From contig JAFEMH010002567.1 in assembly GCA_022495995.1 (NCBI GenBank), positions 1 through 64,000 of the forward strand: a DNA stretch of 64,000 nucleotides. The letters are read 5' to 3'. The notes below the pieces were generated by a model. That model was not told the DNA's origin, did not search any database, and was given only the letters and a program-made list of their open reading frames with translations. Each line of letters begins with the position of its first letter. Position 1 is the first letter of the stretch. Source of the DNA: Adenophora triphylla var. japonica. Taxonomy: Eukaryota > Streptophyta > Magnoliopsida > Asterales > Campanulaceae. Positions 1,003-61,866 of the stretch are shown one piece after another. The position numbers and the translations under genes are program-made.

Positions 1003-2401
1003 TGTAAGTACCCCACTCTGGATCACACCCGTTTCAAACACACGGGAAACACCGCAGACTCATCAACACAGTCTCAACGACCCCTCTCACTCAAAACCCT
1101 CTCTAAACCCCCAACCAAACCAAGGGAGGAGCCTTTGCAGGATAAAAAGGGACAAAAGGACCTTTCGGGAATTTTCGAGGAAATTGGAAAAGCAATAATG
1201 GTCCGTACGGACCTCTTTGCTTTAATAATTGCGAATCTTCTTAAAGTCCACAATATTCCCTCAAATCCAGGGAAAATGATTACCCTCATGCTTAGTTGGT
1301 CCGTACGGACCTCTTTGCATGCAAGATGGTCCGTCACGGACCTTATTGCATAGGGAACACCATAATTACGAATATTCACCATCATCACATATTCCCTCAA
1401 ATCGAGGAAAACCAAAATTTGGATAACCGGGAGGTCCGTACGGACCTCTTTGCAATTTTTCCTACTATAAATAGAGGGCTCCCCCTCCCATTTTCACACA
1501 CCTCCCTCTTCTCTCTTCCTCCCTTAGCCTTCGGCTCCCCTCTAAGTCCTCTCGAGGCATTCCCGGCCCCTTTCGGATCCTTCCGAGGCCTTAGAGCCCC
1601 TCGTGGTGCTCAGAAGCCTCCCGAGCGCTCCCGAGCGGCTCCGCGCTGCCAGAGGCACTCTCGAGGTACTGAGGCCCCTCGTGGTACTCAGAGGCCTTGC
1701 ACAGTCTTTCCACGGTGTCCGGCTCTTTCGAGTCAAACCGGCGATCCCAAACCACGCCGAAACTGCGCCCAGAGTGACTCCACCGCCACCCTGACGCACG
1801 CACGCCCGAACCTCTGCCCAGAGTGATCCCGACGATCCCCACGCACGCCGAACCTGCGCGAACGCGGCACTGCAACCTCAACTCACGCCGAAACTGCGTC
1901 GCGGACAAGCGGCATCTCCGAAGCAATCCCGATCCGTGCAGGAACGCTACTCCGACCTCAAACACTATTCCCCGGCGGAGAAGGCAGGACACGAACCAAC
2001 ATTGGTAAGGCTTCCTTCCATTACTATTTCAATACATTTCCATACATAGCATACAATGTAGACATCCGATACGACATGCATTTTTAAAAGCACACACACA
2101 CACACACAACATTTAAAGGATATTAGGGGTATCAGAAAGACTCGTTTTACGAGGCGACTCGGGTGAGCTCTAATATTCTAATATTCTCTTCCGAGGAGTC
2201 ATCGACCTCCGAACTCAAAATCTCATCACACAAAAACAGAGTTTAAAATTATCTTTAAGCGATGCCCTTTTCAATGTTTTGGGCTTAATAAAAACGGCGT
2301 GGCGACTCTACAAAATGCGAAAACAAAACGGCGAGACACCGCCGCCACGCGAAAGATGCCGGATGCGGGGCTGCGAAGCTGCTCGGATCCGGGTAATTTC
2401 G
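1003..2401 (+). repeat. TatA 5' LTR
   Basis: Direct-repeat partner of 17474-18889. It opens with TGTAAGTACC and ends before the PBS. It holds four palindromic GTCCGTACGGAC sites, a TATA box (ctataaatag, 1465-1474), a CT/CG-rich leader, a CA microsatellite (about 2093-2108) and, about 100 bp before its end, a tggcgactc string that mimics the true PBS. It differs from its partner by many one- to three-base changes, mostly at CNG trinucleotides. Confidence 0.9.
1201..1474 (+). promoter_or_regulatory. TatA 5' LTR promoter: four GTCCGTACGGAC palindromes plus TATA box
   Basis: Perfect 12-bp palindromes occur at 1201-1212, 1299-1310 and 1434-1445, and a 13-bp variant with one inserted base at 1329-1341. 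Most are followed by CTCTTTGC. The last is extended to the 18-bp perfect palindrome GAGGTCCGTACGGACCTC (1431-1448), just 17 bp before the TATA box at 1465-1474. The position immediately upstream of TATA suggests a U3 regulatory element; binding factor unknown. Confidence 0.75.
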
Positions 2402-2403
2402 GT

Positions 2404-2421
2404 TGGCGACTCCATTGAGGA
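2404..2421 (+). other. TatA primer-binding site (Arg-tRNA type)
   Basis: TGGCGACTCCATTGAGGA lies three bases after the LTR end. TGGCGACTCC is the start of the Arg-tRNA-complementary PBS known from Tat/Ogre elements; the 3' half diverges from the usual CACTGGGGA. Confidence 0.8.
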
Positions 2422-5590: not shown

Positions 5591-5889
5591 CGAAACTCCA
5601 AGCGAGAGCGGACCCCTGCAATTTCCGAGACCGTCGGCATCTTTGTCCCGCTACGGCCAGGAGCGTGAAACCGGAGTCAAGAGATCTCGTGACCGGGAAT
5701 TCCGACAAGAACGCCCGAGGGCAAGCTGTCTCCCTACGATCTTTGCCCCGGCCAGAGGCATACAAATGGATGGATCGAACGTTCCCCGAAGAGGCGGAGT
5801 CAAACGGTAGCACGGGAAGCGGTTTAGCCTTCATGACGATGACTTGCCAATATGTGAGAATCGGCACAACGAAGCCCTCCTCATCCTCA

Positions 5890-9515: not shown

Positions 9516-11034
9516 TCATTCCGCGCCATCTGCGCTTGTCCCCTCGCCATTCTTTCCTTTCTTCCCTCGTCCCCGGCGAGTCTTCTTTCGCTCCACGTGA
9601 ACCCAACTCTGCGTCTCTCGGTCAGAGATCGGGGTCCTCCCGTAGAGTCAAACAATCCAACGCTCTCGGGGCTTCATTCGCCGTGCTTCGGCTCGGATCT
9701 CCTCCCTGCGAGTGCAGCCAAGAGGACCTCTCCCTGTCGGTCGGTCAACTCTAGTCTCGTAGTCAAACAAAGTGTCTCCCGTCACATCGAAAGGGTCGGA
9801 CCCGGGCTTCGGCACTCCTAAGGCAATAGCTACTACGGCAGCCGGGTCCCAGAATCGCTACACGCACGCTCTCCAAGACCACTTGGGGCCTTGACCACGT
9901 TGCTCATACCGGGCCGGGTGCGAGTCGTCAATACGACACTCTCCCAGACGTCTAAGGAGTACCACGGGAGGGAAGCGGGATACTTCCATACCCTCGGAAA
10001 ATACAAGAAGGCACACAGAAGGCTGCCATACAAAGAGGAACTACCTCCGCGTAGTAGCAAGGTCATCCCGGCCAACAAAGGCTCCTGCTTCATCCCAAGC
10101 TGCCGGGAAACAAGCGACGGAATATAGAAGGAGGATCAAGACAAACCTGGAACTACGACGACGTAGGACCCTTCGTGCAAGGTCCTCCTAGTCTCAATCC
10201 TCCGGTCGGAACCCACCGGCGGATCGATGCGTACCAAGGCTGTGCCATCCATCTCTCCCAGCGGGTGATCCATATCCAACACAAGAGGTCGGCGAGCAAA
10301 TGACCACGGGCTAAACGACGTCGGAGCCTCGGGCATGGCTGGAGTCTCTCTCGCGGCCACAAGGTGAGCAAAGCGGGGCTTCCCCCTCTCATGAACCGAT
10401 CCCCGGTCGCCGGACGGTCGATACCATGAAGAGTCTCCCCCGGCACCAACGGGACAATATCCTCTCCCGGCTCTGCGGTGCCCTACCACATCTAGCAAAG
10501 CGCCATCGCAAATGCGAGGAGGCGACCATGAAGAGCGTCGCTATCGTGCGCACAAGGCGAATGCATCCCAAGAGACGTCACTCTCATCATCAAACATGAA
10601 CCGCTCCCGGCATCTCGAAATGTTGATATGACCCGAATCAAGGATCATGCCTGCACTTCTTCCAACGAAGTACGAAGAAAGCACGCCAGCTTCACGCTCA
10701 CAGCAGCACCACCAATCAAAGGAAGCGAGATGGCCTCCACCTCCGGTCCCCCCATCAAAGCCCGAAAATCCTCAAAAGTGGGCACCATTTCATTATAGGA
10801 GAAACAGTACACATGCCTCCTAACATCCCAGAACTTCGCGGCAGCCCGCAACAAATCCCAATCAGGAACCAACTCCTTAAAAGACCAAATCGAGCAAAGA
10901 CGAAACCTTACCTCGAAAGCCCGTCTCTGATGCCTCATACAACGCCGCATCCACGTTTTCAGCTGCTCAAGGAAGTGTGCTTGCCTCTCCTGCGAAAGCC
11001 TCGGCAAAATTCTAGGGACGTACGAAGAATCCAT
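9516..11034 (-). pseudogene. TatA antisense gene 2: PMD-like protein, broken
   Basis: The reading starts with ATG at 11034 (MDSSYVPRI...). The first 129 codons are open and contain DWDLLRAAAKFWDVRRHVYCFSY (about residues 58-80) and PTFEDFRALMGGPEVEA, the signature of the plant mobile domain (PMD) as found in MAIN/MAIL-type proteins and in retrotransposons. The rest, in shifted frames, parallels TatR gene 2 through DIVPLVPGETLHGI, GGSPALLTLWPRERL and VPGLS-SSFYIP to a basic RGRG-KKGKNG tail ending at 9516. Several stops and frameshifts make it non-functional as assembled. It lies in reverse to pol, with no introns visible. Its role is unknown; PMD proteins in plants are linked to silencing and genome stability. 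Confidence 0.75.
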
Positions 11035-11200
11035 GGCAAAAATGGAGGTTCCTAGAGAAAATGGGGAAGAAAGCTCGAAAATGGCTGCAAATGGGGAAAT
11101 AGGGAAGAACCAGACACTGGAAAGCCTTTATCTCCTTCCCAAAAGCAAGGTTGGTCCTTACGGACCTCTTTGCATGCTAAGTATGTCCGTACGGACCTCC
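11035..11200 (-). promoter_or_regulatory. Upstream region of antisense gene 2 with two LTR-type palindromes
   Basis: GTCCTTACGGAC (11154-11165, one mismatch to the LTR palindrome) and GTCCGTACGGAC (11185-11196, perfect) lie 120-160 bp before the ATG. The first is followed by CTCTTTGCA exactly as in the LTR. On the - strand a weak TATA-like GATAAAGG lies near 11130. The palindrome orientation on the DNA is the same as in the LTRs. Confidence 0.6.
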
Positions 11201-11471: not shown

Positions 11472-14400
11472 TCAAATGTCTGTTGCTAAACAAAAAAAAA
11501 AAAGAGAAGATATGGAAAGAGGGAAAGCAAATGGACCACTAATCCGACTCTTGACATCATCATCATCCTCGCCGAGGTCCTCCAGAGAGAAGTCGGGCAT
11601 CCCTGTGAACTCGCCCGCCACATCCTCGTCATCAGAGTACCGAGCCCCCGCCGGAGGCTGCCACTCAAAGTAATCTGAAGGATCAAATCCGGCGAAAGGA
11701 TCAAAGAAAGAAGGCTCTGACGGACCCTCGCCCTGTGCATCCTGAGGAGGGAAGAACTGATAAAAGGGCTGCTGCCCCAGAGCTCCTGAAGACGTCCCGG
11801 CATCCATACTATGCCGCCCCCTCGAAGGTCCCTCCTGCTGCGGCTCCGGCTCGGCTCTAGGCGGAGGAACGTCTACAGAATGCCTCGAAGGCATAGGCTC
11901 GTACGCCGGCACGCGTCGCGAAGACCGGCAAGATATCTTCGACGCCATCTTCTTCGCAAACGACCTCATCGCCACATAACGGCGAGTCAGCATATCATAG
12001 GCTCTCCCCGGGACCTGCACCAACAAGCAGCCAAGGAAACGCTCAGCAATACAGTTACACTCGACAACAAAAAGAGAAAAATGCAGAAAAGATGCCAAGA
12101 TGGAAAAGAGTCAGCACACTCACCGATCTGTCGGGATCCACTCTGTATGCAGCAGGAGCCTGCTCAGGAACGGGTACAGACACCCTCCTCCTCGATCCGT
12201 CCCCCCGGACATACGTGAAATCCGGCCCCGGCATCGGAACCTCTAGGGGAGCCTGCGGGCCAGCCTCTCTCTCCATCGCCGGTACTGCGGCGTCCTCAGC
12301 TTCCTCCTCACGAAGGCCCCGTACTCCTCTCCATACAAGATGAACTCCTCGGCGCCCACACCGCCCAGGTACCTCTCAAAATCAAGCACATCCATATCCC
12401 GGGAATCAAGCATCCCAAAAGGAGGGTCCCTCGGAGCCACGGGAAGCACACAGGGGCCATCTTTGCCCGGAAGACCCGCTCCCCCGGATACATAACATCG
12501 CAGTCGGGCCCCGCGGCATCTTCCCGGCTGCTTTGCCACCTCGGGAGCCCCCTCAAACTCATCCCCCTCATACCGAGCCCACGGGAACAAAATGAACCCC
12601 TCCGGGCTACCCCTCTCTAGACGCTCCTGCACATCCCCGTAGGCGATGGTGAGCTTCCCCCTGCTGGTCCTCCTCTTCCTCGCCGTACGAGCCCAGCCCT
12701 CAAAGATAGCGAGTGCGCGGCAAAGAATGGCCCAGGGATCTCTATCCCACTTGGGAAACACCGAAAAATCTCGTAGAACCACACACTGTGACAAAAACGA
12801 GAAAAGGCTCGGTGCAAAAGAAAACGGAGAAAAGACAAGTTGCTAAATCAAAAACGGCAATAAACTCATACCTCCAAAGCAAAGTCAAAACGAGGCCAAT
12901 GGGCGCACACCCAGGCTAAACCGGTCCAAAGAGAAGTAGAGCTCGGCCAAGCACGCCTCGCCCCAAGCAATGTCACATACTCTCTCCAGATCAACCAAGC
13001 TCTCCAACAGAGCAAAGGGAGCCGCAGTAGCGTGGTTCGAGAACAAAGTCTCGGACAATGCATACCACAAAAAGGAGCGCGCCAGCTGCTCCGCCGTCAC
13101 CTGGCCGGTACCCCGGACATAGGCCCCAATACTGGCCGTGATCTTCAGCTCCACGTCGCTATATAGAATCCCCAGGCCCCTGCGAGGACGAGGCTCAAAG
13201 CCCAGCAGCTCGGTCAACACAACATCGGAGATCATATCTCTCCACCGTACCGGCCCTCCTTTGAAGGAAAGCCGGTAATCGCAGCAAAGTCGGTCGGCAT
13301 CACCGTCACCTCTCCCCAACTCAGATGGAAGGTGTGGGTGGTATCCCACCAATACTCGGAAAGGCCAAGGAAGACGCTCTTGTTCTTCCTCGTGTCAGAA
13401 ACTCCGGCCAGGTTCTCGACGAACACCCCCAGGCCAGAAGCGTAGACCAGCCTCCTGGGACTCGGCCTACCATCCACAGAAATATCGGGCATCCGCTGCC
13501 ACAGCTCAACAACAGCCTCGAGCGATCCCCGAGTCTTCATCCTCTTGGCCTTCCCGGCCATAAGCCCCGCATCCTGCAGGTAAACACAGCAAAGGTACGT
13601 CAATCACAGTACTTAATATAAAACAAAAGGCACAAAAGTCCGTCCCAACACGGAAAGCCATGAAAGTAACCCGTCACAAAACACGGCACACATTGCACAT
13701 ATTTTTCACATATATCCCGTCACAAAACACGGCACACATTGCACATATTTTTTCACATATAACCCGTCACAAAACACGGCACATATTGCACATAATTTTC
13801 ACATACATTATACATATAATTTTTCCCATGCAGTCCGTCACAAAAACACGGCACACACTGTACACATTTTCTCAAAAGAAAAAAAAAAAAAGGGGGATTA
13901 AGCCCTACACGACACATTTTCAAAAAAGTCCGTCCCAACACGGCAAAGGCACATATAACCCGTCACAAAAACACGGCACATATTGCACATATTTTTCCCC
14001 ACAAAGTCCGTCACCCAAAAACATGGCACACACGGCACGACACATATGCATAACACATTTTTCAAAAAATCCGTCCCTACACGGCACACACTTTCAGACA
14101 AAACCCGTCACAAAACACGGCACATGTCACATTTTTTCACAAGATTTGTCACTACACGACAAACTTTTCTCATAATGTACATACATAAATAGCATACGGT
14201 ACAAAACACCAAAGCATGCATTTCATTAGAGAGGCACTTTATTTTCACAAATAAAAGCTAATCTATACATTTCTGCACAAAATACACATACCCACAATTT
14301 TTACATGTCTATTTTCAACAATTCATCAAGAATTTCACAAAAAGCATAAAAAAATAACAAAAAATTCAAAAATGCGAAAAACTAAAACCTAGTTCTAGCA

Positions 14401-14612
14401 TTCAAAAATTCGAGCAGGGAATCAAAACGGAACGGATTTCTTACCTCCCCGACGTTCCTAGAACGACGATTGTGCACCTCCGGATTCGGATACAAGACAT
14501 CCGGGTTCTTCGAAGATGGAACGAACGAAATCCAATTTCTTTGGAGCTCCATCCGTTGCTCGACCACTTCTTGACTGCGTTGACGACGACTCCTTCGAGA
14601 TCCTTCCGCCAT
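11472..14612 (-). pseudogene. TatA antisense gene 1: four-exon PMD-like gene, broken
   Basis: Exons inferred from GT-AG borders and homology to TatR gene 1: exon 1 14612-14455 (MAEGSRRSRRQRS, basic), exon 2 13573-12872, exon 3 12785-12124, exon 4 12014-11472. Exon 2 has ELWQRMPDISVDG, WWDTTHTFHLSWGEVTVMPTDFAAITGF, then after a one-base shift near 13267 VRWRDMISD, EQLARSFLWYALSETLFSN and CLAELYFSLDRFS, all colinear with TatR. Exon 3 opens with VWFYEIFRCFP. Exon 4 begins VPGRAYDMLTRRY and ends in an acidic, Pro/Ser-rich tail. At least three frameshifts interrupt it. The exon structure and PMD-like central part make it a plant-mobile-domain relative; the terminal exons are unknown. Confidence 0.75.
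13650..14180 (-). repeat. Minisatellite in intron 1 of TatA antisense gene 1
   Basis: Degenerate tandem units of roughly 40-50 bp built on CCGTCACAAAACACGGCACA followed by TTGCACATATTTTTCACATA. About ten imperfect copies fill most of the intron (14454-13574). The unit contains the inverted pair CCGT...ACGG. Confidence 0.7.
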
Positions 14613-14815
14613 TGCAAGCGATTCAAGCGAAGAAAATGGAGGATTTTGGTAAAAATGGAGGTTTTCTCTCTTTCTCTCTCTCGGATGCACGAACTGGAGA
14701 AGAAGAAGTGAAGGGGGCCTCGGTTTTTTTAACCCGGTCAAAACCTGGGAACTGTAAAAAACCAAGGTGGTCCGTACGGACCTCTTTGCAGCCAGGTTGG
14801 TCCGTATGGACCTCT
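14613..14815 (-). promoter_or_regulatory. Upstream region of antisense gene 1 with two LTR-type palindromes
   Basis: GTCCGTACGGAC at 14770-14781 (perfect) and GTCCGTATGGAC at 14800-14811 (one mismatch), both followed by CTCTTTGCA as in the LTR, lie about 160-200 bp before the ATG of antisense gene 1. A CT/GA-rich stretch (14660-14710) lies in the leader. Together with the gene 2 upstream region, every recognisable promoter of TatA carries the same palindrome. Confidence 0.65.
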
Positions 14816-16340: not shown

Positions 16341-16354
16341 AGCACAAGGCAGCC

Positions 16355-17473: not shown

Positions 17474-18889
17474 TGTAAGTACCCCAATCTGGATCACACC
17501 CCTTTCAAACACACTGGAAACATCGCAGACTCATTAACACAGTCTCAACGACCCCTCTCACTCAAAACCCTCTCTAAACCCCCAACCAAACCAAGGGAGG
17601 AGCCTTTCTGGGATAAAAAGGGACAAAAGGACCTTTCGGGAATTTTCAGGAAATTGGAAAAGCAATAATGGTCCGTACGGACCTCTTTGCTTTAATAATT
17701 ACTGAATCTTCTTAAAGTCCACAATATTCCCTCAAATCCCGGGGAAAATGATTACCCTCATGCTTAGTTGGTCCGTACGGACCTCTTTGCATGCAAGATG
17801 GTCCGTACGGACCTTATTGCATAGGGAACACCATAATTACAGAATATTCACCATCATCACATATTCCCTCAAATCGAGGAAAACCAAAATTCTGGATAAC
17901 CAGGGAGGTCCGTACGGACCTCTTTGCAATTTTTTCCTACTATAAATAGAGGACTCCCCCTCCCATTTTCAGGGACACCTCCCTCTTCTCTCTTCCTCCC
18001 TTAGCCTTCTGGCTCCCCTCTAAGTCCTCTCGAGGCATTCCCGGCCCCTTTCGGATCCTTCCGAGGCCTTCCGAGCCCCCTCGTGGTGCTCCGAAGCCTC
18101 CTCGAGCGCTCCCGCGACGCTCCCGCGCTGCCCCGAGGCACTCTCGAGGTACTCTGAGGCCCCTCGTGGTACTCCGAGGCCTTGCCTGGTCTTTCCACGG
18201 TGTCCCGGCTCTTTCCGAGTCAAACCGGCGATCCCAAACCACGCCGAAACTCTGCCCGAGTGACTCCTGCCACCACAATGCACGCCGAACCTCTGCCCGA
18301 GTGATCCCGACGATCCCCACGCACGCCGAACCTCTGCCCGAACGCAGCCTGCAACCTCAACTCACGCCGAAACTCTGTCCGCAGACAACCGGCATCTCCA
18401 GAAGCAATCCCGATCCGTACCGGAACGCTACTCCGACCTCAAACACTATTCCCCAGCGGAAGACAGACACGAACCAACATTGGTAAGGCTTCCTTCCTAC
18501 ACTATTTCAATACATTTCCATACATAGCATACAATGTAGACATCCGATACAGCATGCATTTTTAAAAAAAGCACACACACACACACACACAACATTTAAA
18601 GGATATTAGGGGTATCCGAAAGACTCGTTTTACGAGGCGACTCGGGTGAGCTCTAATATTCTAATATTCTCTTCCCGAGGAGTCATCTGACCTCCGAACT
18701 CAAAATCTCATCACACAAAAACAATTTAAAATTATCTTTAAACTGATGCCCTTTTTCAATGTTTTGGGCTTAATAAAAACGGCGTGGCGACTCTACAAAA
18801 TGCGAAAACAAAACGGCGAGACACCGCCGCCAACGCGAAAGATGCCAGATGCCGGGGCTGCGAAGCCTGCTCGGATCCGGGTAATTTCA
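17474..18889 (+). repeat. TatA 3' LTR
   Basis: 1416 bp, starting TGTAAGTACC and ending TTTCA before the 5-bp target duplicate. It carries four perfect GTCCGTACGGAC sites (17671-17682, 17771-17782, 17801-17812, 17908-17919; the last within GAGGTCCGTACGGACCTC) and a TATA box (ctataaatag, about 17939-17949). All four palindromes are perfect here, whereas one in the 5' LTR has an extra base. Confidence 0.9.
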
Positions 18890-21735: not shown

Positions 21736-23192
21736 TGTAGGTGTTAGTGCCCTAGGCCTAGAGAGATATACCTTTATGTAATGTCATTGTTCATTTATAT
21801 AAGAGAATGTTTCTTTGATTATTATATATGTTTGCATGTTTAGTTATAATAATCGTGTCCCTAGTACTTATGAAGCACTAGTATGAAGTCTAATGGATAA
21901 TCATGTGATGATTATATGCATGGAGATGCACATTAGATTCATGGGTACTTGTTAGAGAACAAGGTACTGGACTTGACCCACTATGAGATTTATGTCATGG
22001 TCATATGTCATAAATAAATCTCATATAGTTATATCATTGATATCCTTTGACCTGAGATTATTATCATCTTCCGCTCGATGAATATCATGTTTGATATAGT
22101 TTAACGTTGTCTTTAACCGGATGACAATAAGGGCTATCATTGGCATGGTATGATTCTTGTTGGGAAGAATGATAAGTCAAGATGGAAAATTGTCCCTCGT
22201 AAAGAGAGATGTTTGCTAGGCCACTCGTAAGTAAGATTGATGTAGTGCATGGCCATGCCCGAATGAATTAATGTGATTAATATCATTCGATTGATCAATT
22301 TACTTAGTAACGAGAAAGCATTGAACAATATGAGTTGACGTGGACCATGACTCATGTTCAATATAACATCGTGTGACAATGGGATTGTGATATGTTCTAT
22401 GTAGGAAAATCGAACTTGATATTATATTATTTGGGTAGGCATGATGGCTTGCTAGAGTTCGCTCATGTCTTATGAGGATCGATGTGATCGAACTCATTGC
22501 CAACATAGTATAGTCCTATGGGGTCACACGCATCGAACGAATTGTCAAAAATGAAGAATATGGAGTTTTTGTTCTCAGGGGACGACTCGTCCCCAGGCCA
22601 GAACCAACTATTCCCCTTAAGGGGGACGCCAGATTCAGAAGATGGGTGCCAGGGGACGACTCATCCCCTGGGGGACGACTCGTCCCCTGGGCACTGGACT
22701 GACGCGAATTTGACTTAAAATTAGGGTTTTGCAAAGGGATTTTATTTATAACGTATAAATACAAACCCTTAGTTGCCCTAGCAGTAAATTTCCATGGTTT
22801 TGGGTTTAGAGAAACACAAAATAGATTGATTCCAATTGAGAATTGAGAATCAAAACACCATTCAATTCCATATTTCTTCATCGATTGAAAGGAGTTTCAA
22901 TCAAGGATCTAGCAATCCGTCTAGAAGAGTTCTAGGGTTCGTTCATCGTGTGGATACACATAGAGGATCTTCGCTATTCAAGATCTTTCGTTCGTGATTC
23001 ATTGATCGTTCATCGAGGATTCACAAGATCAACAATTTGGAGTTGGAACGCGTTTATCAACGACAAAAGCACACAAGGTTGGTAATTCTATTTCATACTT
23101 CTTAATTAATCATCTAGAACGGATTCTAGGGCTCCGGGTTTTCGAGTTAATTTTGCATTATTCCGCTGCGCATGGACCCTCGAAACCCAACA
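21736..23192 (+). repeat. C1 3' LTR
   Basis: 1457 bp from TGTAGGTGTTAG to CGAAACCCAACA. It is homologous over most of its length to the solo LTR at 38048-39543 (shared start, shared block near 22020-22420/38340-38760, shared CCGCTGCGC near the end). The 5' LTR is outside the window. A TATA box (tataaata, 22754-22761) follows a palindrome cluster. Confidence 0.85.
22578..22761 (+). promoter_or_regulatory. C1 LTR palindrome cluster and TATA box
   Basis: GGGGACGACTCGTCCCC (8-bp perfect arms around one base) occurs at 22578-22594 and 22671-22687, with a one-mismatch copy at 22652-22668. CCCCTTAAGGGG, a perfect 12-bp palindrome, is at 22613-22624. The TATA box follows at 22754. The cluster stands out as GC-rich in AT-rich surroundings. 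Confidence 0.7.
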
Positions 23193-26939: not shown

Positions 26940-28667
26940 TTCTTTTTATGAAAAAGGGGTCGTCGTTCACCTCAGTTTGAAGACACCGGTTTTATGAAAA
27001 ATGGAGTCGCCACGCCATTAGGTTAAGTTACTCCTTGGGAAGAACGTTTGACATTCTCCCAAGGAGCCTTGCAAAAGCAAGTTTCCTAGGTCCAAAATTT
27101 GTGCTTGTTTGTGTGCTTGTGTGCATGCGTGATTTGAAAAGAGAAAAGGATGTGCCAAGTTCATTATTCGAACGTAACAACCATTTTTAGAAGGTTTTAG
27201 TTCGGGATACCTTGGACTTTGGTGTTTTCGGGATTTTGATCCCATGCTCACTTTGGACTTATGATCATCATTACGGGACTTATCTACCCTCCCGTTATAT
27301 TAATCAACCATCATAGGCGTATGGGCCTTGGTATGTCTTAACCTAACTTTCCTTGGGGATTTTTAGTCACATGTGATCAAAAGGGGCTTGTTTTTAAGTC
27401 CAAGAATGAGACTCTTTAGAAAAGAATGAAACTTTGTCCATCGATCCTATATCTTGAGACAATGATGATTCGTAGGGACATTTTTATGTTCATCTCAAGT
27501 GATTATCAGAGATTTCGGGACCAAGACTCATCGGTTTCTAAAGGGACAAATAGTGTGGCATTTTTATAGTGGGATTGATGTAAAGATAGAGCCTTTACAC
27601 CTATCCTCCCCATGGAATGCATCAAGAACCACAGGACTAGGGGAATGGGATGTAAAGATTGAATCTTTAAGATCATCCTATGTCTTTTTGTGCCTTAGAA
27701 GGCTTTTAGACAATCCTTGGAAAAAAAGATCAATCTTTAGGGACATGGGGGAAATAACATTAATGTAAAGATTGCATTTTTAATATGAACAATATGAGGA
27801 GTATCATTAATCTAAAGACATAATGTAAAAGGGATGATCATGGATTTTCCTATGTCCTTAATACCTCATAAGGTGGACAATCCTTGGAAAGCTAGATCAA
27901 TGGGAAAGGGGATGACATAAAATAGATAAAGATTGCATTTTTATACATAAATGTAAAGGGGAATCACATCATCATATGGTAGATCATCCCTAGAACAAGC
28001 CACTTGTGGAATCTTGTTCATCCTAGGGAGAGGATCTCCATTTGAATCCTTTGTGTAGGGGAGTGGGAAATATAGGAATTACATTGATAAAGATCAAAGC
28101 TTTATGACAATAACAAATTTAAATAACAAGTAAAAATAGAACAAGCGTATATAGGAGTGTATCAAAGGTAAAGGAAGGAGAGATTACCAATATTGGTTTT
28201 TCTCTATCTTCCAAGGGAGTTTTCCTAGGCAATATCTATTTAGGAATAGATTAAGGTAGAATTAGTGTATGAGAGAGGAGGGTTTTGTGTGTTTCTAGGG
28301 ACTGGAATTCGAGGTGATATTTCTGCAGAGTAACAGTGCTCTGAATTCTCTTTCAAAATGAATAGAGGAGGCCTCTATTTATAGGCTTCTGGTTTGCTTC
28401 TAATGAAGCCGCCCGACGTGATCTTGCGGCTAATGAAGCCGTCCGGCGTCTTCTTCCATCGCGTCAGCATGTTTCTGGAATCATGCAAGGTGGCAGCTTG
28501 GAAGCTTCTTTCCAGCGAGGTCCTGTTCAGAATTCTAATTCCTAATAGGTCCTTCCTTGCTTGGAAAGTATTGAAAAGTTCCCGAATTGCCCCTAAACTT
28601 TATGAAAGTTTGGGGAACTGATAGGAAACTTTAACTGGAAGGCATGAGCCAGATTTGGGTACTTACA
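26940..28667 (-). repeat. TatR 3' LTR
   Basis: Starts (on the - strand) TGTAAGTACCCAAATCTGG, as the TatA LTR does, directly after the polypurine tract. TATA box ctataaatag at 28375-28384 on the - strand. Its far end is uncertain: a GTGGCGACTCC string at about 27005-27015 resembles the one inside the TatA LTR about 100 bp before its end, so the true end is probably near 26940, where integrase sequence of TatL begins. Variants of GATGTAAAGATTG recur several times at 27570-27780. Confidence 0.7.
28374..28450 (-). promoter_or_regulatory. TatR LTR promoter: GCCGNNCGGC-type sites and TATA box
   Basis: GCCGTCCGGC (28438-28447; GCCG/CGGC arms around two bases) and the imperfect GCCGCCCGAC (28408-28417) each follow TAATGAA. 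They lie 24-73 bp upstream of the TATA box (28375-28384, - strand). The same kind of pair occurs upstream of PMD gene 2 at 33201-33239. Confidence 0.6.
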
Positions 28668-38047: not shown

Positions 38048-39543
38048 TGTTGGTGTTATGCCATTGGATTATATTTATTTTGACTCATAACTAATACCAT
38101 TATGTAATCGTCTTTACCATTTATAATAGAGAATGTGTATCTTGAGTATTATATGTATTATATGTTTATTATAATATTCTATTACCCTAGTTATTGTGAA
38201 TAACTAGTATAAGTTGGTAATGGATAATCATAGAGATGATTATATGCATGGGGATGCACATTACACTTATGGGTACTTGTTAGAGAACTAGGTACCGGAC
38301 TGATCCATCAATGAGATTTATGACATGGTCTATGGTCATATATGTCATGGTTAAATCTCATGATAGTCGTGTCATTGGAATCCTTAGTACCTGAGATTAT
38401 CATCGTCTTCCACATGATGAACGTTGTGTTTAATGTAGTCTAACACTATCTTTAATAGGATAGCAATAAGGGCTATGTTGGCACGACTGAATTCTTGTAG
38501 GGAAGAATGATAAGTCAAGGTGAGATTTGTTCCTCGTAAAGAGAGATGTCTGCTTGGGCCCCTCGATAAATTGTGTTGATGAAATGTGTGGCCACACTCA
38601 AGAGATTTAATAGAGATCAAATGCACTTGGATTATCAACATATTTAGAGTCGAGAAAGCATTGAACAATATAAGTTGACGTGGACCATGACTTATCTTCA
38701 ATATGACATCGTGTGACAAAGGGATTATGACAATGATCTATCAATGAATCAAACTTTGATGTTATATTTATTTGGGTGGACATAATGGCTTGCTAGAGAC
38801 CACTTATATCTTGTGAGGTTGATGTTTCAACTCATTACCAATATAAAATATAATTCCTAAAGGGTCATACTCAAAGAACGGATTGAAAATGGCTCAAAAA
38901 TGGAAAAGGGGAGGGGGCGATCGCGCCCTACGGTAGGGGCGATCGCACCAAGCTTCTAGATAAGGGGAGCGTCCGCTCCCAAGCAAGGAGAGCGACTGCT
39001 CCCAAGGTCTGGCAGATTCCATTTTGGATTTGGATAGGGCTTTTATCCCTAACTTTTAGGGACATTTATAAAGTATAAATAGCCCCTTTTACCTCAGTCA
39101 ACACACACGAAATTTAAGGCTTGAGAAACACAAATCTCTTGATTTTGATTACGAATCAAAGATCAAAACACCCTAGATTTAATTCCATATCGGCCGTAGA
39201 TTGTTGAAAAGAGTTTCAACAATCGAGGATCATCTAGCAATCCAACAATATTCCATCTTGGTTCATTCGCGTGTAGATTACCGATAGAGGGTGATTGCTT
39301 TATCACCTAAAGCTTGAAGGCCTACCGTTGTTGATTCATCGCAAGGAAGAACAAGGAAGAAGATCAAAATTTCGTCTACGACTCAAAAGGTGAATTACGA
39401 TTCGTGTACGAAAAACAAAATTGCAACAAAGGTTAGTAAATCTATATTCATAGTTTTAATCTCTTCATATTAGACAGATTCATGGCTAGGGTTTTGTTTT
39501 TATGTTAATTCTTCCGCTGCGCTTGTAACCCCAAAACCCAACA
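38048..39543 (+). mobile_element. Solo LTR of the C1 copia family
   Basis: 1496 bp from TGTTGGTGTTA to AAAACCCAACA, flanked by CAATG (38043-38047) and TAATG (39544-39548), a 5-bp target duplication with one transition. No internal region adjoins either side, so it arose by recombination between two LTRs. It aligns with the C1 3' LTR along its length, except for the promoter palindromes, which are unrelated in sequence. Confidence 0.85.
38917..39081 (+). promoter_or_regulatory. Solo LTR palindrome cluster and TATA box
   Basis: GCGATCGC at 38917-38924 and again at 38939-38946, both inside GGGGCGATCGC; GGGAGCG-TC-CGCTCCC at 38965-38980; and a decayed relative GGAGAGCGACTGCTCCC at 38987-39003. 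The TATA box tataaata follows at 39074-39081. Position matches the C1 cluster exactly. Confidence 0.7.
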
Positions 39544-50013: not shown

Positions 50014-51370
50014 TGTTGGAAAAAAAGTGTGTTTTGAAGGAAATAATGAGTTATTTTCTTAATTTGTTATTTGTTAAAATGACAAATTGATTGTTGGATT
50101 GTGTTCTACTCCATGAGTACATTGAAATCATATATTCATTTGTCAAAAATGGTTGAGAAATGAATGAGATATGAAGGCTCAAAGTTAATGGGTTGGAATG
50201 GGTAAAATGTGGTTATCCCACATTGGAAAAAGATGAAAAAGTGGCTAAGTTTAAATACTCCTACACTTTGGTAGGGAGTAAGATTGTGGTACATAGAGGC
50301 TCTCTCTCGCGCACAGGTGCACAGGGGGGGGGTGAAAATCATGGACCGAAATAGGCTTCGGACTACCGAACTCATGTGCATGCGTGTGGACACGAATGTA
50401 GCTCCGAAATAGCCTGCCCGCGCGAGCCCGCTTTTTACAATTTTTTTTTTTCCAAACTTGACCCAATGTTTCTGGAGGTGAGGCGGGCGCCTCGACTCCA
50501 GTAGGTGCGGCTCATTTGTGACCATTACGAGGCGGGCACCTCACGTTCCCCGAGGCGGGCGCCTGGGCTCCAGTGGCTCTACGAGGAAATGGTTTTGCAC
50601 TGTTTTGTAACAGCTCAAAAGGCTGTTAATGAAGGGGTAAATTCCAACAGCCATATAACAAACTTGACCCAATGTTTCTGGAGGTGAGGCGGGCGCCTGG
50701 ACCTGCCTGAGGCGGGCGCCTCGACTCCAGTAGGTGCGGCTCATTTGTGACCATTACGAGGCGGGCACCTCACGTTCCCCGAGGCAGGCGCCTAGGCTCC
50801 AGTGGCTCTACGAGGAAATTGTTTTGCACTGTTTTGTAACAGCTCAAAAGGCTGTTAATGAAGGGGTAAATTCCAACAGCCATATAACTGTAAAAGGGAG
50901 GTAATGAGCAAAATAATTATGCAATTATGTTGAAATAATTGTATTAATTAAGAAAATTAAAACTTGATTTAATTTTCTGTTATCTCCTTTGATTATATAA
51001 TGGCAAGAACACAACAACAGAAAGACAGATTTTCCAGAAATTCCCTACTCTCAATTTCGTTGCATATTGTTCATCTTTCCCTTGGCCTCCTTGCATTGCA
51101 TTCGTGGTGATAAAGTTCAAGCATCGACTTCAGTTCGCCGGAGGTATTCTTGTGCAACCACCGTCCGGTATATCCGTTTCATCCTGGGAGGCAAGCGTTC
51201 CATAACAACTCAAGCACAACGTGGTGAGGGGGCGTAATTTGTCTTAAGGAGAGTGTGATTTCACACGACTCGGACAGCGAAAAATTCATTTTCTTCTCTT
51301 GTATTTTCTATTTCTGTTTTAAATTAGTTTCTATATTTCCAGCAGAGATTTTGTAATAGTTATTCCAACA
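50014..51370 (+). repeat. CopG 5' LTR
   Basis: 1357 bp, about 204 bp longer than the 3' LTR because a unit of 206 bp (starting AACTTGACCCAATG at 50455 and 50661) is duplicated in tandem. A TATA-like attatataatgg is at about 50992-51003. Confidence 0.9.
50480..50800 (+). promoter_or_regulatory. CopG LTR palindrome cluster
   Basis: GAGGCG-GG-CGCCTC (6-bp arms) at 50480-50493; GAGGCGGGCACCTC (one mismatch) at 50529-50542; GAGGCGGGCGCCTG at 50552-50565; the tandem duplicate repeats the set at about 50687-50793. The 3' LTR has the same series at 56519-56620, two of them as GAGGTGGGCGCCT. The cluster precedes the TATA-like box by about 200 bp. Confidence 0.65.
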
Positions 51371-51372
51371 AT

Positions 51373-51387: not shown

Positions 51388-51450
51388 TGTCTCTTCGTTG
51401 GAAGGAAAACTATTTAAAACATTGAACTAAAATTGTTTGTTTGGTTTCAG

Positions 51451-56052: not shown

Positions 56053-57205
56053 TGTTGGAAAAAAGTGTGTTTTGAAGGAAATAATGAGTTATTTTCTTAA
56101 TTTGTTATTTGTTAAAATGACAAATTGATTGTTGGATTGTGTTCTACTCCATGAGTACATTGAAATCATATATTCATTTGTCAAAAATGGTTGAGAAATG
56201 AATGAGATATGAAGGCTCAAAGTTAATGGGTTGGAATGGGTAAAATGTGGTTATCCCACATTGGAAAAAGATGAAAAAGTGGCTAAGTTTAAATACTCCT
56301 ACACTTTGGTAGGGAGTAAGATTGTGGTACATAGAGGCTCTCTCTCGCGCACAGGTGTGCAGGGGGGGTGCAAATCATGGACCGAAATAGGCTTCGGACT
56401 ACCGAACTCATGTGCATGCGTGTCCTGCGGACACGAATGTAGCTCCGAAATAGCCTGTCCGCGCGAGCCCACTTTTTACAATTTTTTTTTCCAAACTTGA
56501 CCCAATGTTTCTGGAGGTGAGGTGGGCGCCTGGACCTGCCTGAGGTGGGCGCCTCGACTCCAGTAGGTGCGACTCATTTGTGACCATTACGAGGCGGGCA
56601 CCTCACGTTCCCCGAGGCGGGCGCCTGGGCTCCAGTGGCTCTACGAGGAAATGGTTTTGCACTGTTTTGTAAATGTACTCAAAAGGTCATTAATGAAGGG
56701 GTAAATTCCAACAGCCATATAACTGTAAAAGGGAGGTAATGAGCAAAATAATTATGCAATTATGTTGAAATAATTGTATTAATTAAGAAAATTAAAACTT
56801 GATTTAATTTTCTGTTATCTCCTTTGATTATATAATGGCAAGAACACAATAAGAGAAAGACAGATTTTCCAAAAATTCCCTACCCTCAATTTCGTTGCAT
56901 ATTGTTCATCTTTCCCTTGGCCTCCTTGCATTGCATTCGTGGTGATAAAGTTCAAGCATCGACTTCAGTTCGCCGGAGGTATTCTTGTGCAACCACCGTC
57001 CGGTATATCCGTTTCATCCTGGGAGGCAAGCGTTCCATAACAACTCAAGCACAACGTGGTTAGGGGGCGTAATTTGTCTTAAGGAGAGTGTGATTTCACA
57101 CGACTCGGACAGCGACAAATTCATTTTCTTCTCTTGTATTTTCTATTTCTGTTTTAAATTAGTTTCTATATTTCCAGCAGAGATTTTGTAATAGTTATTC
57201 CAACA
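56053..57205 (+). repeat. CopG 3' LTR
   Basis: 1153 bp; lacks the 206-bp duplication of the 5' LTR but retains a 23-bp segment (GGACCTGCCTGAGG) that the first copy in the 5' LTR lacks. Scattered substitutions distinguish the two LTRs. Confidence 0.9.
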
Positions 57206-57210
57206 AAAAT

Positions 57211-57910: not shown

Positions 57911-59237
57911 ATGCATACTTTAATCCTCCTAGCTTTTGCTTAGATTTGATTGATACCATAACCTTGTCTCTATTTTAAGGACTTTAGGCCCATATGTAAT
58001 GAAGCTTAGACTTCAATTTTTTCGCTAAGTCCATTTTATAGAATAGGTTTTAATTAGGCTTGAAGACTGGCACAAGACTCATTGGACATGAGGTTTCAGC
58101 TCAAGATGTTTTAGACCGCACCATCAAAACCGCATGTGCAAACCGATCCAAGCAAACTGCTCTGTGGAATTCTCTATTTGAAACTGCATCTTGAATACCT
58201 TAGTGCAAACCACATTAAGTGAACCGCACTTGTTAACTGCAGTGTAATTCCAATCTTGAGACCGCACTATGGAACCTCCTCTGGTGAAACCGCACTTGTC
58301 AAACCGCATGCGCACCAGACCGCATCCAATGATTGAAGACTTGAAGTGAACCACATATGACTGTTGGAATCCATGTCAACAATGAAAAAAGTCAACCACC
58401 AAATCTTGTCACATGACTAAGTATCAGACAAGATCTGCAAGGATCTTGAAAAGGTGACAGGTGTCTTTCATACCTTATTTGCAGCTGGAGTCTGATCAGC
58501 TTTATCTGCAATTGCTGTACCAAAGGACAAAAGTGGATTTGTGAACCAATCAGAAAGCACCAGTACAGTCCTTGCAAACAGCTGTGTCCAACAGCTATAT
58601 CCTTGGTGCTTGGGTATAAATACCCCTAATCTTCAACACTTGAAGATTGCTTGAGAAAATTGAAAATTGATGTGAGTTCATAAGAAGTTGAAGCTCTGCC
58701 CAGAAAATATTCAGCTCTTTGAATCTTCATCATCTTCCTTCAAGAAACATTTTCCTGCCCAGAAATCAAGCCTTATACACCATCAAGAATCATTGTGCTC
58801 TACATCTTTTAGATTCAAAGAGCCTTGATCTTGTTTGTCACACACACACCTCACTTGTATAATCACATAGATTATTCATTTGAGATATACCGATTATAGT
58901 CTAGGATTTGATCTTCATAGAATAGATTTTAGATCTGAGTATTACTCTTTGTACTTTGTAATCTCTCATACTCAATATAAAATCTAACTCTTATAAAATC
59001 CAAGATAACCATCTTGGTAGTGGATGTAGATCATTTATGATTGAACCACTCCAAATTCTGTGCTCTTACATTTCTGCATTTTTATCTTCTGTGCTTGCTA
59101 ATTACTTATTTTTATCTCTGTTTGATCTTATATACAGTTATCCATTATTGTGAATTATGTTTGAAGTTAACTTTGTCAAACCTCACATTTCAGTTTTATA
59201 AACCGCACTGAAAAACCGCTTTAGAAACCGCACCTCA
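57911..59237 (+). repeat. LtrH: LTR-like noncoding stretch with ACCGCA direct repeats
   Basis: No coding sequence. ACCGCA and close variants occur about ten times between 58113 and 58330, and again three times at 59205-59232. A TATA box tataaata is at 58615-58622, followed by a leader-like region and T/A-rich possible polyadenylation area. The layout (repeats, TATA, leader) is that of an LTR, but I could not define its ends or find a partner. Confidence 0.45.
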
Positions 59238-61866
59238 TGTCACGACCCTAAACCTAGGCATTATTTTGGTTACATGTGGAGCCCGTGGGGGTGGGGTGCG
59301 TGGCAGCTCATTTATGCATTTCATGCTATTTGTTAGTTTTATGTGTTCATTTTGATATAATGATAACTTAATTGATACTTTAGGATGTTGATAAGATTTC
59401 TTTATTTATTTAATGATCACTTGAAATAAATGAGAGTGGTATAGTGGAAATATTAATTGTTGAAATTTTATAAATAAATGTATAGTTTTTGTTGAGGTGC
59501 TTTAGTGTCAAAGTGGAATTTTAAAGCAGTTAGTTGTAGTAAGTAAAAGCTTGGAGGAGCTAAAGTGTAACTTGGGTTAATATATATCCTATGCTTAAAT
59601 CCATGGAAAGCCTCATTACCTCAAATCAATTGCCAAGTTTCTTTCTCTGTTCCATTGTAGAAAAAGAAAAGTCTAGGGTTATTTCATCCTTTAAAAATTC
59701 ACTATAAATCAACCATTGTTCCGTTCTTCGATCCGTCTTCACCAAAATATTCGGAAAGCCGAGAGGATCGAGTCTAGCTGATTAAAGTTTTCTTATTTTC
59801 GAATTAATTTGTAAGTTATTATGTCTCTTCCTTCAATACTTGTTCATTTGAAGTTTGAAGTTGTTATTGTTAATGTATAAAATATTGCATGTCAATTTTA
59901 GGCATTTTATTGGTTTTGGAATTAATGGAAATTAGTTTTGGATGAGTATAATGGATTGTTAGTATAGTGATTGGTTTGAATTGGAAAGGTTGATATATTG
60001 TGTTACATGGTATTTTGGCCCATTTTATTTGGTTTTAGAATGGATTGGAATAGGTTTTGGAGGATTATAATGAAGTAAGGGTATATTGGTTTTGTTGAGG
60101 TTGAAATAGGTTAATTATAAATGTTGTAAGTTATTATGATTTCCTTCAAAATCTTACTCATGAAATGTTAAAGTTGATAATTTTGTTATATAAATGGTTC
60201 TTGGTATTTTAGAATATTTTTCTTAAGTTAAAATTGTATTTGGAAGAGATAAATTGAGGTTTGGTCATGGTTTAATGGTTAAGGTAAAATGATAAGAGTA
60301 AATTTAAGTCTAAGGTTATATTGGTTGTTATTGAAGTGTTGCATGTGGTATTTGACCACTTCTCTTAGGTTTAAATGGGTAGAAATGGGTTGGAATGGAT
60401 TGATATGAGTGGTAATGAAGTTGGAAATTGGTTTTGTTGCTTAAGGATCAGAGAGAATGAGTATATGAACAAATATGGTTTTGATGTTGCTGGTGTTACT
60501 GATGTTGTAAACTCTGATCTGAGTTTCTGCAGAAGGGCACGAGTCGTGCCCTGTGGCACGAGTCATGCCATGCATTCGTACCTAGTCGTCCCCTTGGGTA
60601 CGAGTATATCAAATAGTAGGAAAGATGGCACGAGTCGTGCCATGGGGCACGAGTCGTGCCTTGGGGCACGAGTCGTGCCCTGCCCTGTTTACCCTAAACC
60701 AGTTTTCAAGCAAATTAAACCTAATCTACCTAGTATACATTTAATTCCTCTTTGACTCTAATCCTAGTACAGCATTAGAGCTTTGCAATAAAGTCTTAAC
60801 TTGTCTAAAATGATATAGGAAAGGTCTTTAAATATGCTCTTGAAAATGGTTGAAAGGCGTTATGAAACCTTAACCAAAGTTGTCAAAACTTGGTAAATTA
60901 ATATTGAACCTTTATAGAAGGTACTCAATGTTGTGTAATGAATATGTAGGGCTTGCTTGTGATACATTGTGCCCATACTTGGTTACATATCCATAGTTGT
61001 TGTTCAAATAGTGTATGAACTACATGTTACACTATTTTATTGGCTTGAGCATGAGTACTATTACCATGTTGTTAGATTGATATTATTTAATAGTGTTTAA
61101 AATGTAAGTTGCACTATTATGATGATTTTAACATGAGTAATATTTCCATGTTATGTATTGTTATCCCGATTGTGGATTTATATTTAAGTAACTGTTATGT
61201 GCTTGAACGTTTATATCAGCTGGTGTTTAGGGGTATAATGGAATACGATCAATTATGGAAAATGTTCTATAAGGTGATCGAATTACATTATACCTGTGAC
61301 TGTCCCCTTCTATGGCCACAGATTGGGGTGTTAGCTTCTGTATTGACCCAAAAGCCTTACAGTTAGCTAGTATCTTATGGGGATCCAGTGAATATGCCTA
61401 AGCAGTTCACGAAGGGAGTATTTATTACTCTCACGTTTATCTTATGGGGATCCGGTGAATATGCTTAAGCAGTTCACGAGGGAGTATTTATTACTCTCAC
61501 GTTGTACGACATATTATTCAGACGGGAAAGGTAAACTGAGGTAACGTAATGTGTTTACCGCTTTACCAATGTGTATTGTGTAACCATGTTATGTATTGCA
61601 CCTTAGTTGGCATATTGTTGCATTCATAATAGCTTGCTGAGATTTCTTCTCACCCCTTCTCCCTTTACTGTTTTAGATCGCGCTGAGACAGGTGACCCGA
61701 ACCAGTGAGGCCGGGAAAGGAGTTTGGACTATTTTCTTTTGGGTTTTGTCAGGGTAAGTTGTATGGTTGGTTGATAATTGGGAGTATAGATGGGATATTT
61801 ATCTTTTGGGGAAAACTTGTATTTTGTATTATGTTGTAAACTGTTTTAATTTTGTAAAGCAAAAAT
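59238..61866 (+). repeat. GyLTR: probable gypsy LTR starting TGTCACGACC
   Basis: TGTCACGACCCTAAACC is a common start of plant Ty3-gypsy (chromovirus-like) LTRs. A TATA box (cactataaatc) is near 59698-59708. The 3' part contains a 62-bp tandem duplication (61373-61500; TCTTATGGGGATCC-GTGAAT and AGTTCACGA-GGGAGTATTT). No internal domain adjoins. The right end seems cut at about 61866 by the next element, so length and solo status are uncertain. Confidence 0.55.
60535..60680 (+). promoter_or_regulatory. GyLTR palindrome cluster
   Basis: GGGCACGAGTCGTGCCC at 60535-60551 and 60664-60680; TGGCACGAGTCATGCCA (60554-60570, one mismatch); TGGCACGAGTCGTGCCA (60626-60642); GGCACGAGTCGTGCC (60646-60660); and a decayed copy near 60577-60605. 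Arms are 7-8 bp around one base. No TATA box was seen directly downstream, unlike the other LTRs. Confidence 0.65.

What the first reader, a model, noticed from the sequence alone, without database searches (positions are those of the whole stretch)
1201..60680. Short GC-rich palindromes clustered in LTRs of several unrelated families
TatA (GTCCGTACGGAC), C1 (GGGGACGACTCGTCCCC), solo LTR (GCGATCGC; GGGAGCGTCCGCTCCC), CopG (GAGGCGGGCGCCTC), TatR (GCCGTCCGGC) and GyLTR (GGGCACGAGTCGTGCCC) each carry two to six palindromic sites. In four or five of them the cluster lies 20-200 bp upstream of the TATA box. Each stands out from AT-rich surroundings and each family has its own sequence. C1 and GyLTR share the core ACGA-N-TCGT. 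CopE and TrimF lack such clusters. A convergent feature across gypsy and copia suggests selection, for example dimeric factor binding, transcript hairpins, or CG-dense sites for methylation sensing.
Basis: seen in the sequence. Interest (0 to 1): 0.85.

Follow-up and report, generated by a model that had tools for sequence, protein, structure and literature searches.

The report
Palindromic promoter boxes in plant retrotransposons
Several plant jumping genes in this stretch carry repeated short mirror-symmetric DNA sites, in most cases in front of their start signal, probably as landing pads for paired regulatory proteins; one of them carries the same sites in front of two extra genes of its own that are read backwards.

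Summary
The palindromes are real and far above chance. A blind scan found 14 pairs of repeated GC-rich palindromes, all in the LTRs of TatA, C1 and CopG or in the GyLTR region; 60 shuffled windows gave 0.05 pairs on average, at most 1. Four element interiors tested are not enriched.

Corrections: C1 and the solo LTR are one copia family. TatR is weak. GyLTR is not shown to be an LTR.

New observations. (1) Between C1 and solo the cluster holds the least conserved window (38%), yet both copies are palindromic upstream of the same TATA box. (2) TatA's LTR module, two palindromes 30 bp apart, recurs inside the element 118 and 156 bp upstream of the start codons of two antisense reading frames (DUF7745-like; PMD).

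Best reading: promoter-proximal binding sites for dimeric regulators. They work like Sirevirus 'RM boxes' but sit in elements that fail the Sirevirus tests applied. New variant of a known kind. There are no binding or expression data, and no further copies of these families could be reached.

The parts
1003..2399 (+). TatA 5' LTR (element about 1003-18888, Tat-type gypsy)
   Evidence: 93% match to the second copy; TG start, 5-bp flanks ACTAC/ACTAT, PBS-like TTGGCGACTCCATTG after it; LTR end approximate
1200..1446 (.). TatA U3 cluster: GGTCCGTACGGACC at 1200, 1298, 1433 and a one-base-insertion copy at 1328
   Evidence: TATA at 1466, 19 bp after the last site
17474..18888 (+). TatA 3' LTR
17670..17920 (.). 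TatA 3' LTR cluster: four perfect copies at 17670, 17770, 17800, 17907
   Evidence: TATA at 17941
11153..11197 (.). Internal copy of the TatA palindrome pair (11153, 11184; 31 bp apart) upstream of antisense gene 1
   Evidence: aligned with the LTR module
10648..11034 (-). Antisense gene 1, ATG at 11034, DUF7745-like, stop after 129 codons; GATAAA at 11132
   Evidence: PF24924 E 1.6e-4, 21.3 bits, below its curated cut-off of 26
14769..14812 (.). Internal copy of the TatA palindrome pair (14769, 14799; 30 bp apart) upstream of antisense gene 2
   Evidence: aligned with the LTR module
12888..14612 (-). Antisense gene 2: ATG at 14612, first exon ending at a GTAAG, then PMD pieces 13235-13603 and 12888-13394 in different frames; intron and joining inferred; GTTAAA at 14733
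   Evidence: PF10536 E 1.6e-9 (37.8 bits, above the cut-off of 34.9) and 1.3e-7 (31.6 bits, below it)
21736..23192 (+). C1 3' LTR (copia); calls used 21737 as start
   Evidence: RVT_2 upstream at 20602-20916; PPT-like AGTGGGAG at 21726; aligned to the solo LTR
22578..22687 (.). C1 cluster: GGGGACGACTCGTCCCC at 22578 and 22671, CpG-decayed copy at 22652
   Evidence: TATA 22754
38048..39543 (+). Solo LTR of the C1 family; calls used 38046 as start
   Evidence: 77% to C1, flanks CAATG/TAATG
38913..39003 (.). Solo LTR cluster: sites at 38913, 38936, 38965, 38988
   Evidence: TATA 39074
28405..28450 (-). TatR pair of imperfect palindromes, 30 bp apart, 21 bp upstream of TATA at 28383 (- strand)
30218..31613 (+). 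TatR antisense PMD gene (first exon from 30218, PMD piece 31164-31613; joining inferred), preceded by 114-bp repeats holding a different palindrome
50014..51370 (+). CopG 5' LTR with a 230-bp tandem duplication; calls used 50013-51371
50480..50794 (.). CopG cluster: seven copies of GAGGCGGGCGCCTC with 0-2 changes
   Evidence: TATATAA 50994
56519..56627 (.). CopG 3' LTR cluster: four copies with 1-2 changes
   Evidence: TATATAA 56829
60535..60680 (.). Gy array: five copies of GGGCACGAGTCGTGCCC with 0-3 changes, partly in 19-bp tandem
   Evidence: identity of the surrounding element not established

Best explanation
The clusters are promoter-proximal regulatory arrays in the U3 part of the LTRs. 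Each family carries several copies of its own dyad-symmetric site, bound as double-stranded DNA by dimeric (most likely host) transcription factors that drive or gate LTR transcription. In TatA the same two-site module is also placed at two internal antisense promoters, so the LTR and two accessory genes (DUF7745-like, PMD) would answer to one regulator. Shown: the sites, their non-random clustering, their place upstream of TATA (not shown for Gy), the re-use inside TatA, and differing letters with symmetry kept between C1 and solo. Inferred: protein binding, activation, that the antisense promoters are active, and who the binder is.
For: Blind scan: 14 of 14 repeated-palindrome pairs fall in TatA, C1 and CopG LTRs or the Gy region, shuffles 0.05. 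The 28 motif copies that I listed in seven LTRs (TatA 4+4, TatR 2, C1 3, solo 4, CopG 7+4) all lie upstream of the TATA chosen, although only 33% of the TatA LTR, and 21% of TatR's as I bounded it, is upstream. A window-wide scan with 2-4 mismatches found no further copy of the TatA, C1, solo-a, CopG or Gy motif downstream of a TATA in these LTRs. TatA's motif (up to 3 mismatches) occurs at only two internal places in 15 kb, each a pair, each upstream of an antisense ATG: 118 bp before gene 1, 156 bp before gene 2, with GATAAA and GTTAAA between; 30 mononucleotide shuffles gave no copy at up to 1 mismatch. The asymmetric flank of the unit has one direction on the + strand at all 12 TatA sites although LTR and antisense promoters point opposite ways, as expected if the symmetric core is what counts. 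C1 versus solo: cluster windows 70, 38 and 51% identical, 16 of the 18 other windows 62-89%, both palindromic; in the one site pair that aligns, an A.T pair is G.C on both arms and the centre base is gone. Sirevirus boxes upstream of TATA and of ENV are the published parallel (PMC2829016).
Against: No binding, expression or methylation data. Within one insertion there is no sign of constraint: TatA LTR pair 0 of 16 CpG columns in palindromes differ versus 20 of 165 elsewhere (too few to tell), CopG the reverse, 3 of 17 versus 1 of 62. Gy's cluster follows the TATA-like sites on its + strand. CopG's cluster is 199-500 bp from the TATA chosen. The short core ACGANTCGT also occurs once in the solo LTR downstream of its TATA (39397). 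Nearness to an ATG alone is weak: 46% of positions in TatA's interior have a start of an ORF of 55 codons or more 90-200 bp away on one strand or the other; on the minus strand 21, 15 and 6% for 55, 70 and 100 codons; and the gene starts were read after the palindromes were seen. TatR's LTR motif is not repeated at its own antisense PMD gene. The TATA-like hexamers of the antisense genes are poor matches. Other copies of the families were not available.
Confidence: 0.52

Rival explanations
1. RNA hairpins. The U3 of the 3' LTR is part of the genomic RNA; palindromes fold within a site or pair between copies, feeding small RNAs or affecting packaging or RNA processing.
For: RNA folding z of -8.1, -9.1, -5.4, -5.5, -1.3 and -10.5 for the TatA5, TatA3, C1, solo, CopG and Gy clusters. 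In maize Sireviruses small RNAs map to palindromic LTR regions (as told in PMC5311732 and PMC10760457, passages; the 2016 paper itself is not held).
Against: Any repeated palindrome folds this way. Spacers of 0-2 leave no room for a loop unless inner pairs open, and the centre is symmetric too; but copies can pair with each other, so this is not decisive. By inspection of the list decayed sites show A.C mismatches about as often as G.U-compatible ones (few cases). CopG folds little better than shuffles.
Confidence: 0.15
2. Mutational origin. Imperfect inverted repeats are made perfect by strand switching during reverse transcription or replication and duplicated by slippage; no function needed.
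For: Letters differ while symmetry is kept in C1/solo; CopG's 5' LTR has a 230-bp tandem duplication holding the cluster that its 3' LTR lacks; quasipalindrome template-switch mutations are known in E. coli (PMC7202029, start of abstract in the listing).
Against: Does not predict a place upstream of TATA, lack of enrichment in interiors, near-identical sites 30-130 bp apart, or the presence of TatA's module before two antisense genes.
Confidence: 0.15
3. CpG-dense sites read by methylation or demethylation machinery, letting the LTR escape or sense silencing.
For: CpG per 100 bases, cluster versus rest of LTR: TatR 12.5 vs 0.7, solo 8.5 vs 1.4 and 3.6, Gy 7.5 vs 0.7 and 1.5, CopG 6.7 vs 2.6 and 2.8, C1 4.8 vs 2.3 and 4.2. 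C1 and Gy copies show CG to CA decay. Sirevirus boxes form CpG islands (PMC2829016).
Against: TatA is the other way, 4.6 (5' cluster) vs 8.3. CpG observed/expected is not consistently raised: TatA5 1.03 vs 1.18, C1 0.50 vs 0.76 and 1.11, solo 0.87 vs 0.51 and 1.08, CopG 0.77 vs 0.73 and 0.87; raised in TatR 1.54 vs 0.21 and Gy 0.90 vs 0.36 and 0.51. CpG needs no 14-18-bp symmetry.
Confidence: 0.1
4. An element-encoded DNA-binding protein is the binder: TatA's antisense products bind the palindromes in the LTR and at their own promoters, a feedback loop like retroviral trans-regulators.
For: The module is at the LTR and before both antisense genes. Retand antisense ORFs (TRP28) have been proposed to bind DNA and regulate; Grande's antisense gene has its own promoter (PMC11963269, PMC7264820, passages).
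Against: No TRP28 hit in the 46 TatA pieces scanned. I saw no report of DNA binding by PMD or DUF7745. CopG has a cluster and no accessory gene that I saw. TatR has a PMD gene but does not share its LTR motif with it.
Confidence: 0.08

Closest known systems
Sirevirus repeated motifs (RM boxes), Bousios et al. 2010, PMC2829016 (passages incl. part of the abstract; sections 6 and 9 read)
   Same: Multi-copy, element-specific palindromes of 10-20 bp, mostly in the upper half of the LTR upstream of TATA; in envelope-bearing members also upstream of an internal gene.
   Different: There called Sirevirus-specific and absent from classic retrotransposons, 8-32 copies per element, CGG-CCG core in 12 of 13. 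Here they sit in a Tat gypsy element, in a copia (CopG) that fails two Sirevirus tests and in a copia (C1) that fails one, with 3-7 copies per LTR, other cores, and in TatA also before antisense genes.
[quoted passage not shown] 2016, not held; seen only through PMC5311732 and PMC10760457 passages)
   Same: Variable, rapidly evolving palindromic region in the regulatory part of LTRs.
   Different: Small-RNA mapping could not be tested here.
Additional antisense ORFs (aORF-3R) of Tat/Retand/Grande elements (PMC7264820, PMC11963269, passages)
   Same: Antisense genes between pol and 3' LTR; Grande's gene23 has its own promoter.
   Different: Sharing of a palindromic module between LTR and antisense gene promoters was not mentioned in the passages I read.
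Gypsy-borne plant mobile domain (PMD-A), Ikeda et al. 2017, PMC5418596 (passages)
   Same: PMD genes inside gypsy elements, as in TatA and TatR.
   Different: The passages treat phylogeny and silencing, not promoters of the element-borne copies. Which PMD clade these belong to was not tested.

Membership tests
Sirevirus (CopG) | 9-bp PBS TATCAGAGC after the 5' LTR | tested here: not met
   Absent from the whole window on both strands; CopG's LTR is followed by ATCTTAAGAC
Sirevirus (CopG) | AGGGGGAG PPT 10 bp before the 3' LTR, several copies in the linker | tested here: not met
   AGGGGGAG occurs at 26797 and in reverse complement at 1479 and 17954 only; CopG has TGTGGGGGATTG
Sirevirus (C1) | AGGGGGAG PPT before the 3' LTR, several copies | tested here: not met
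   C1 has AGTGGGAG at 21726 (also at 20710 and 19950); G to T at the third place is a common 'classic' change in PMC2829016 section 6
Sirevirus (C1) | PBS TATCAGAGC | not testable with these tools
   C1's 5' end is not identified in the window
Sirevirus RM boxes | Palindromic repeated motif in the LTR upstream of TATA | tested here: met
   TatA, C1, solo, CopG and weakly TatR; not shown for Gy
Sirevirus RM boxes | CGG-CCG core and at least 8 copies per element | tested here: not met
   Cores differ (TatA has CCG..CGG; C1 ACGANTCGT) and 2-7 copies per LTR; by number TatA would pass, 12 copies counting both LTRs and the interior
Tat-type gypsy (TatA) | Tat-type PBS and GAGGGGC PPT | tested here: met
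   TTGGCGACTCCATTG after the 5' LTR and GAGGGGCTTC before the 3' LTR; the signatures themselves are recalled
Tat-type gypsy (TatA) | Reverse transcriptase of the lineage | tested here: inconclusive
   No RT, integrase or gag family among the 46 ORF pieces scanned, of 91 listed of 75 aa or more; TatA is broken or non-autonomous

The most novel reading that the evidence does not exclude
Dyad-repeat U3 arrays are a general, repeatedly evolved control device of plant LTR retrotransposons, gypsy as well as copia, in which symmetry and place are conserved while letters turn over; in Tat elements the same module ties the LTR and antisense PMD-type accessory genes into one regulon, possibly with the accessory protein as its own regulator.
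Probability: 0.2. Interest if true: 0.8.

Novelty: new variant of a known kind. Interest (0 to 1): 0.55.

Why it matters
Palindromic LTR boxes were described as a Sirevirus speciality (PMC2829016). Finding them in a Tat gypsy element and in copia elements that fail the Sirevirus tests applied suggests a convergent solution, and makes a testable link between LTR control and the puzzling antisense PMD genes of Tat elements. The C1/solo pair gives a natural test of 'symmetry without sequence'.

Tried and rejected
Relatives elsewhere: viral contigs searched with CopG pol and with a CopG+CopE alignment found none confirmed by tblastn. An exact 16-mer of the TatA palindrome gave 5 stretches in IMG/VR contigs; I judged this chance, without a calculation in a call, and did not examine them. 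The C1 LTR had no megablast match in plasmids.

Single common factor: rejected as unproven. C1 and Gy share ACGANTCGT, and the weak blastn matches between them (78% over 46 bp, 76% over 38 bp) are at the palindromes; other cores differ. A resemblance of TatA's core to SBP-box GTAC sites is recalled only. TatA and TatR modules: both have a 30-bp pair about 20 bp before TATA or with one member there, but the letters do not align convincingly, so homology is not claimed. The first exons of the two antisense PMD genes look alike in layout but blastp found no match. Insertion targeting of palindromes (PMC6911290, passages) concerns target sites, not LTR content. Literature: 9 searches in the held PMC library, most with capped listings (for example 20 of 127 papers, 12 of 593). 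Of six exact palindrome strings five are in no held paper; the sixth (GGGGCGATCGC) is in six papers whose titles concern other subjects. In what I saw I met no report of palindromes shared by LTR and antisense promoters; supplements were not searchable.

Full report
What is there. The window is plant DNA packed with LTR retrotransposons (judged from the elements; no organism was identified). The seven quoted palindromes are all present. I set the elements out from self-alignment, flanks and domain hits: TatA, an 18-kb Tat-type gypsy element with both LTRs; C1, the 3' end of a copia element; TatR, the 3' part of a Tat-like element on the minus strand; a solo LTR; CopE, a minus-strand copia with 264-bp LTRs 99.6% alike; a TRIM-like element with CopG, a copia with both LTRs, inserted in it (AAAAT on both sides); and the 'GyLTR' region, whose nature I could not establish. 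LTR limits used in calls may be off by a few bases.

Is it more than chance? Two tests. Counting GC-rich palindromes in 22 regions against dinucleotide shuffles, the LTRs of TatA, C1, solo and CopG and the Gy region are enriched (p at most 0.04 for the TatA 5' LTR, at most 0.01 for the other six, uncorrected), while the TatA, TatR, CopE and CopG interiors, the CopE LTRs, the TRIM parts, TatR's LTR and the intervening stretches are not. In a blind scan for repeated palindromes over all 64 kb, 14 pairs appear: TatA 5' LTR 2, TatA 3' LTR 5, C1 1, CopG 5' LTR 3, Gy 3; 60 shuffles in 500-bp blocks gave 0.05 pairs on average and 1 at most. That scan did not pick up solo or TatR, nor the internal TatA pairs, where one member of each pair is imperfect. 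Pairs within one array are not independent, TatA's two LTRs descend from one copy and CopG's repeats partly from a duplication, so the count of independent cases is four (TatA, C1/solo, CopG, Gy), or five with the weak TatR.

Corrections to the finding. C1 and the solo LTR are one family: 814 aligned bp at 77%, and again 120 bp at 75% at the 3' end. TatR has one exact 10-bp palindrome and one imperfect copy. Gy has no second LTR in the window. On its + strand the TATA-like sites 59702 and 59469 precede the cluster and the next lies at 63017; on the minus strand a TATATAA at 60186 would put the cluster upstream by about 345 bp. Read by eye, a GTAAG at 59811 and a TTTTAG at about 61675 would make the cluster part of a leader intron if the + strand is right. 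CopG's sites are 199-500 bp from TATATAA; a nearer CATATAAC at about 50882 was not adopted.

Symmetry without sequence. C1 and solo LTRs align along their length, with the same TATAAATA. In 75-column windows the three that hold the cluster are 70, 38 and 51% identical; of the 18 others 16 are 62-89%, one 55% and one (the first) 50%. So the lowest window lies in the cluster. Both copies are palindromic there, with different letters. In the one site pair that aligns, AGGGGACGACTCGTCCCC against AGGGGGCGA-TCGCGCCC, an A.T pair is G.C on both arms and the centre base is gone; the solo arm is itself not quite perfect. This is one family pair and one site, so suggestive only. In the Gy array the outermost pair is G.C in two copies, T.A in two and broken in one.

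The module inside TatA. The LTR holds two palindromes 30 bp apart (1298/1328; 17770/17800). The same module, about 55 bp, occurs at two internal places, 11153/11184 and 14769/14799, and the motif (up to 3 mismatches) nowhere else in the interior. On the minus strand each place is followed by a TATA-like hexamer (GATAAA at 11132, GTTAAA at 14733, both poor) and an ATG 118 and 156 bp on. Gene 1 matches DUF7745 (E 1.6e-4, under the curated cut-off); gene 2 has PMD pieces (E 1.6e-9 above and 1.3e-7 below the cut-off) after an inferred intron. An ATG nearby is not rare by itself: 46% of interior positions have one on either strand for ORFs of 55 codons or more; on the minus strand 21% for 55 codons, 15% for 70, 6% for 100. 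From the ATGs, 129 and 76 codons precede a stop. The weight rests on both places lying before recognisable accessory genes, judged after the fact. TatR also has an antisense PMD gene (31164-31613, E 4.8e-15) with a spliced-looking first exon from 30218, but upstream of it lie 114-bp repeats with another palindrome (TTCCGTTCTAACGGAA or close to it), not the TatR LTR motif.

How it most likely works. Arrays of dyads upstream of a TATA box are what binding sites for dimeric transcription factors look like. In TatA the asymmetric flank keeps one direction at 12 of 12 sites while the promoters would point both ways, so the symmetric core is probably what matters. The binder is unknown; a host factor is likelier than an element protein because CopG, in which I saw no accessory gene, has such an array too. 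Hairpin, methylation and purely mutational readings remain open (rivals). For methylation, CpG per length is raised in the clusters of TatR, C1, solo, CopG and Gy but not TatA; CpG observed/expected is clearly raised only in TatR and Gy.

Selection. There is no sign of constraint after insertion: TatA LTR pair 0 of 16 CpG columns changed in palindromes, 20 of 165 elsewhere; CopG 3 of 17 against 1 of 62. That is expected, since single insertions drift; selection would show only across insertions, which I could not obtain beyond C1/solo.

Against what is known. Bousios et al. 2010 describe such boxes in Sireviruses, upstream of TATA and, in envelope-bearing members, upstream of the envelope gene, and call them Sirevirus-specific, absent from classic elements. 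CopG fails the Sirevirus PBS and PPT; C1 fails the PPT; TatA is gypsy by PBS and PPT. So these work like RM boxes without being Sirevirus RM boxes. A 2023 maize paper notes that cis-regulatory regions of various TEs are often arrays of repeats, sometimes palindromic (PMC10760457, passage), so the general idea is not new. PMD in gypsy elements and an antisense gene with its own promoter are published. The sharing of one palindromic module between LTR and antisense gene promoters I did not meet in the nine searches listed and the passages read.

Noticed in passing
12888-14612 (-) and 30218-31613 (+): Both Tat-type elements carry a PMD gene antisense to the element, apparently with a first exon of about 60 codons ending at a GTAAG, next to tandem-repeat arrays; the two first exons do not match by blastp.
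   Followed up: partly
29440-30153: TatR: five 114-bp tandem repeats upstream of the antisense PMD gene, with TTCCGTTCTAACGGAA-type palindromes (two perfect, others with one change) and an inverted repeat CTATCTCT...AGAGATAG.
   Followed up: partly
50453-50888: A 230-bp tandem duplication in CopG's 5' LTR only, covering the palindrome cluster: a likely post-insertion gain.
   Followed up: partly
48975-57652: A TRIM-like element (LTR about 600 bp, interior about 290 bp) whose second LTR is split by CopG.
   Followed up: no
14816-15801 and 16364-16708: TatA 3' region: 52-bp and 43-bp tandem arrays between the antisense gene and the 3' LTR.
   Followed up: no
41424-41650 and 36090-37613: Two large inverted repeats (105 nt, 88%; 101 nt, 90%), perhaps MITE-like or foldback elements.
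   Followed up: no
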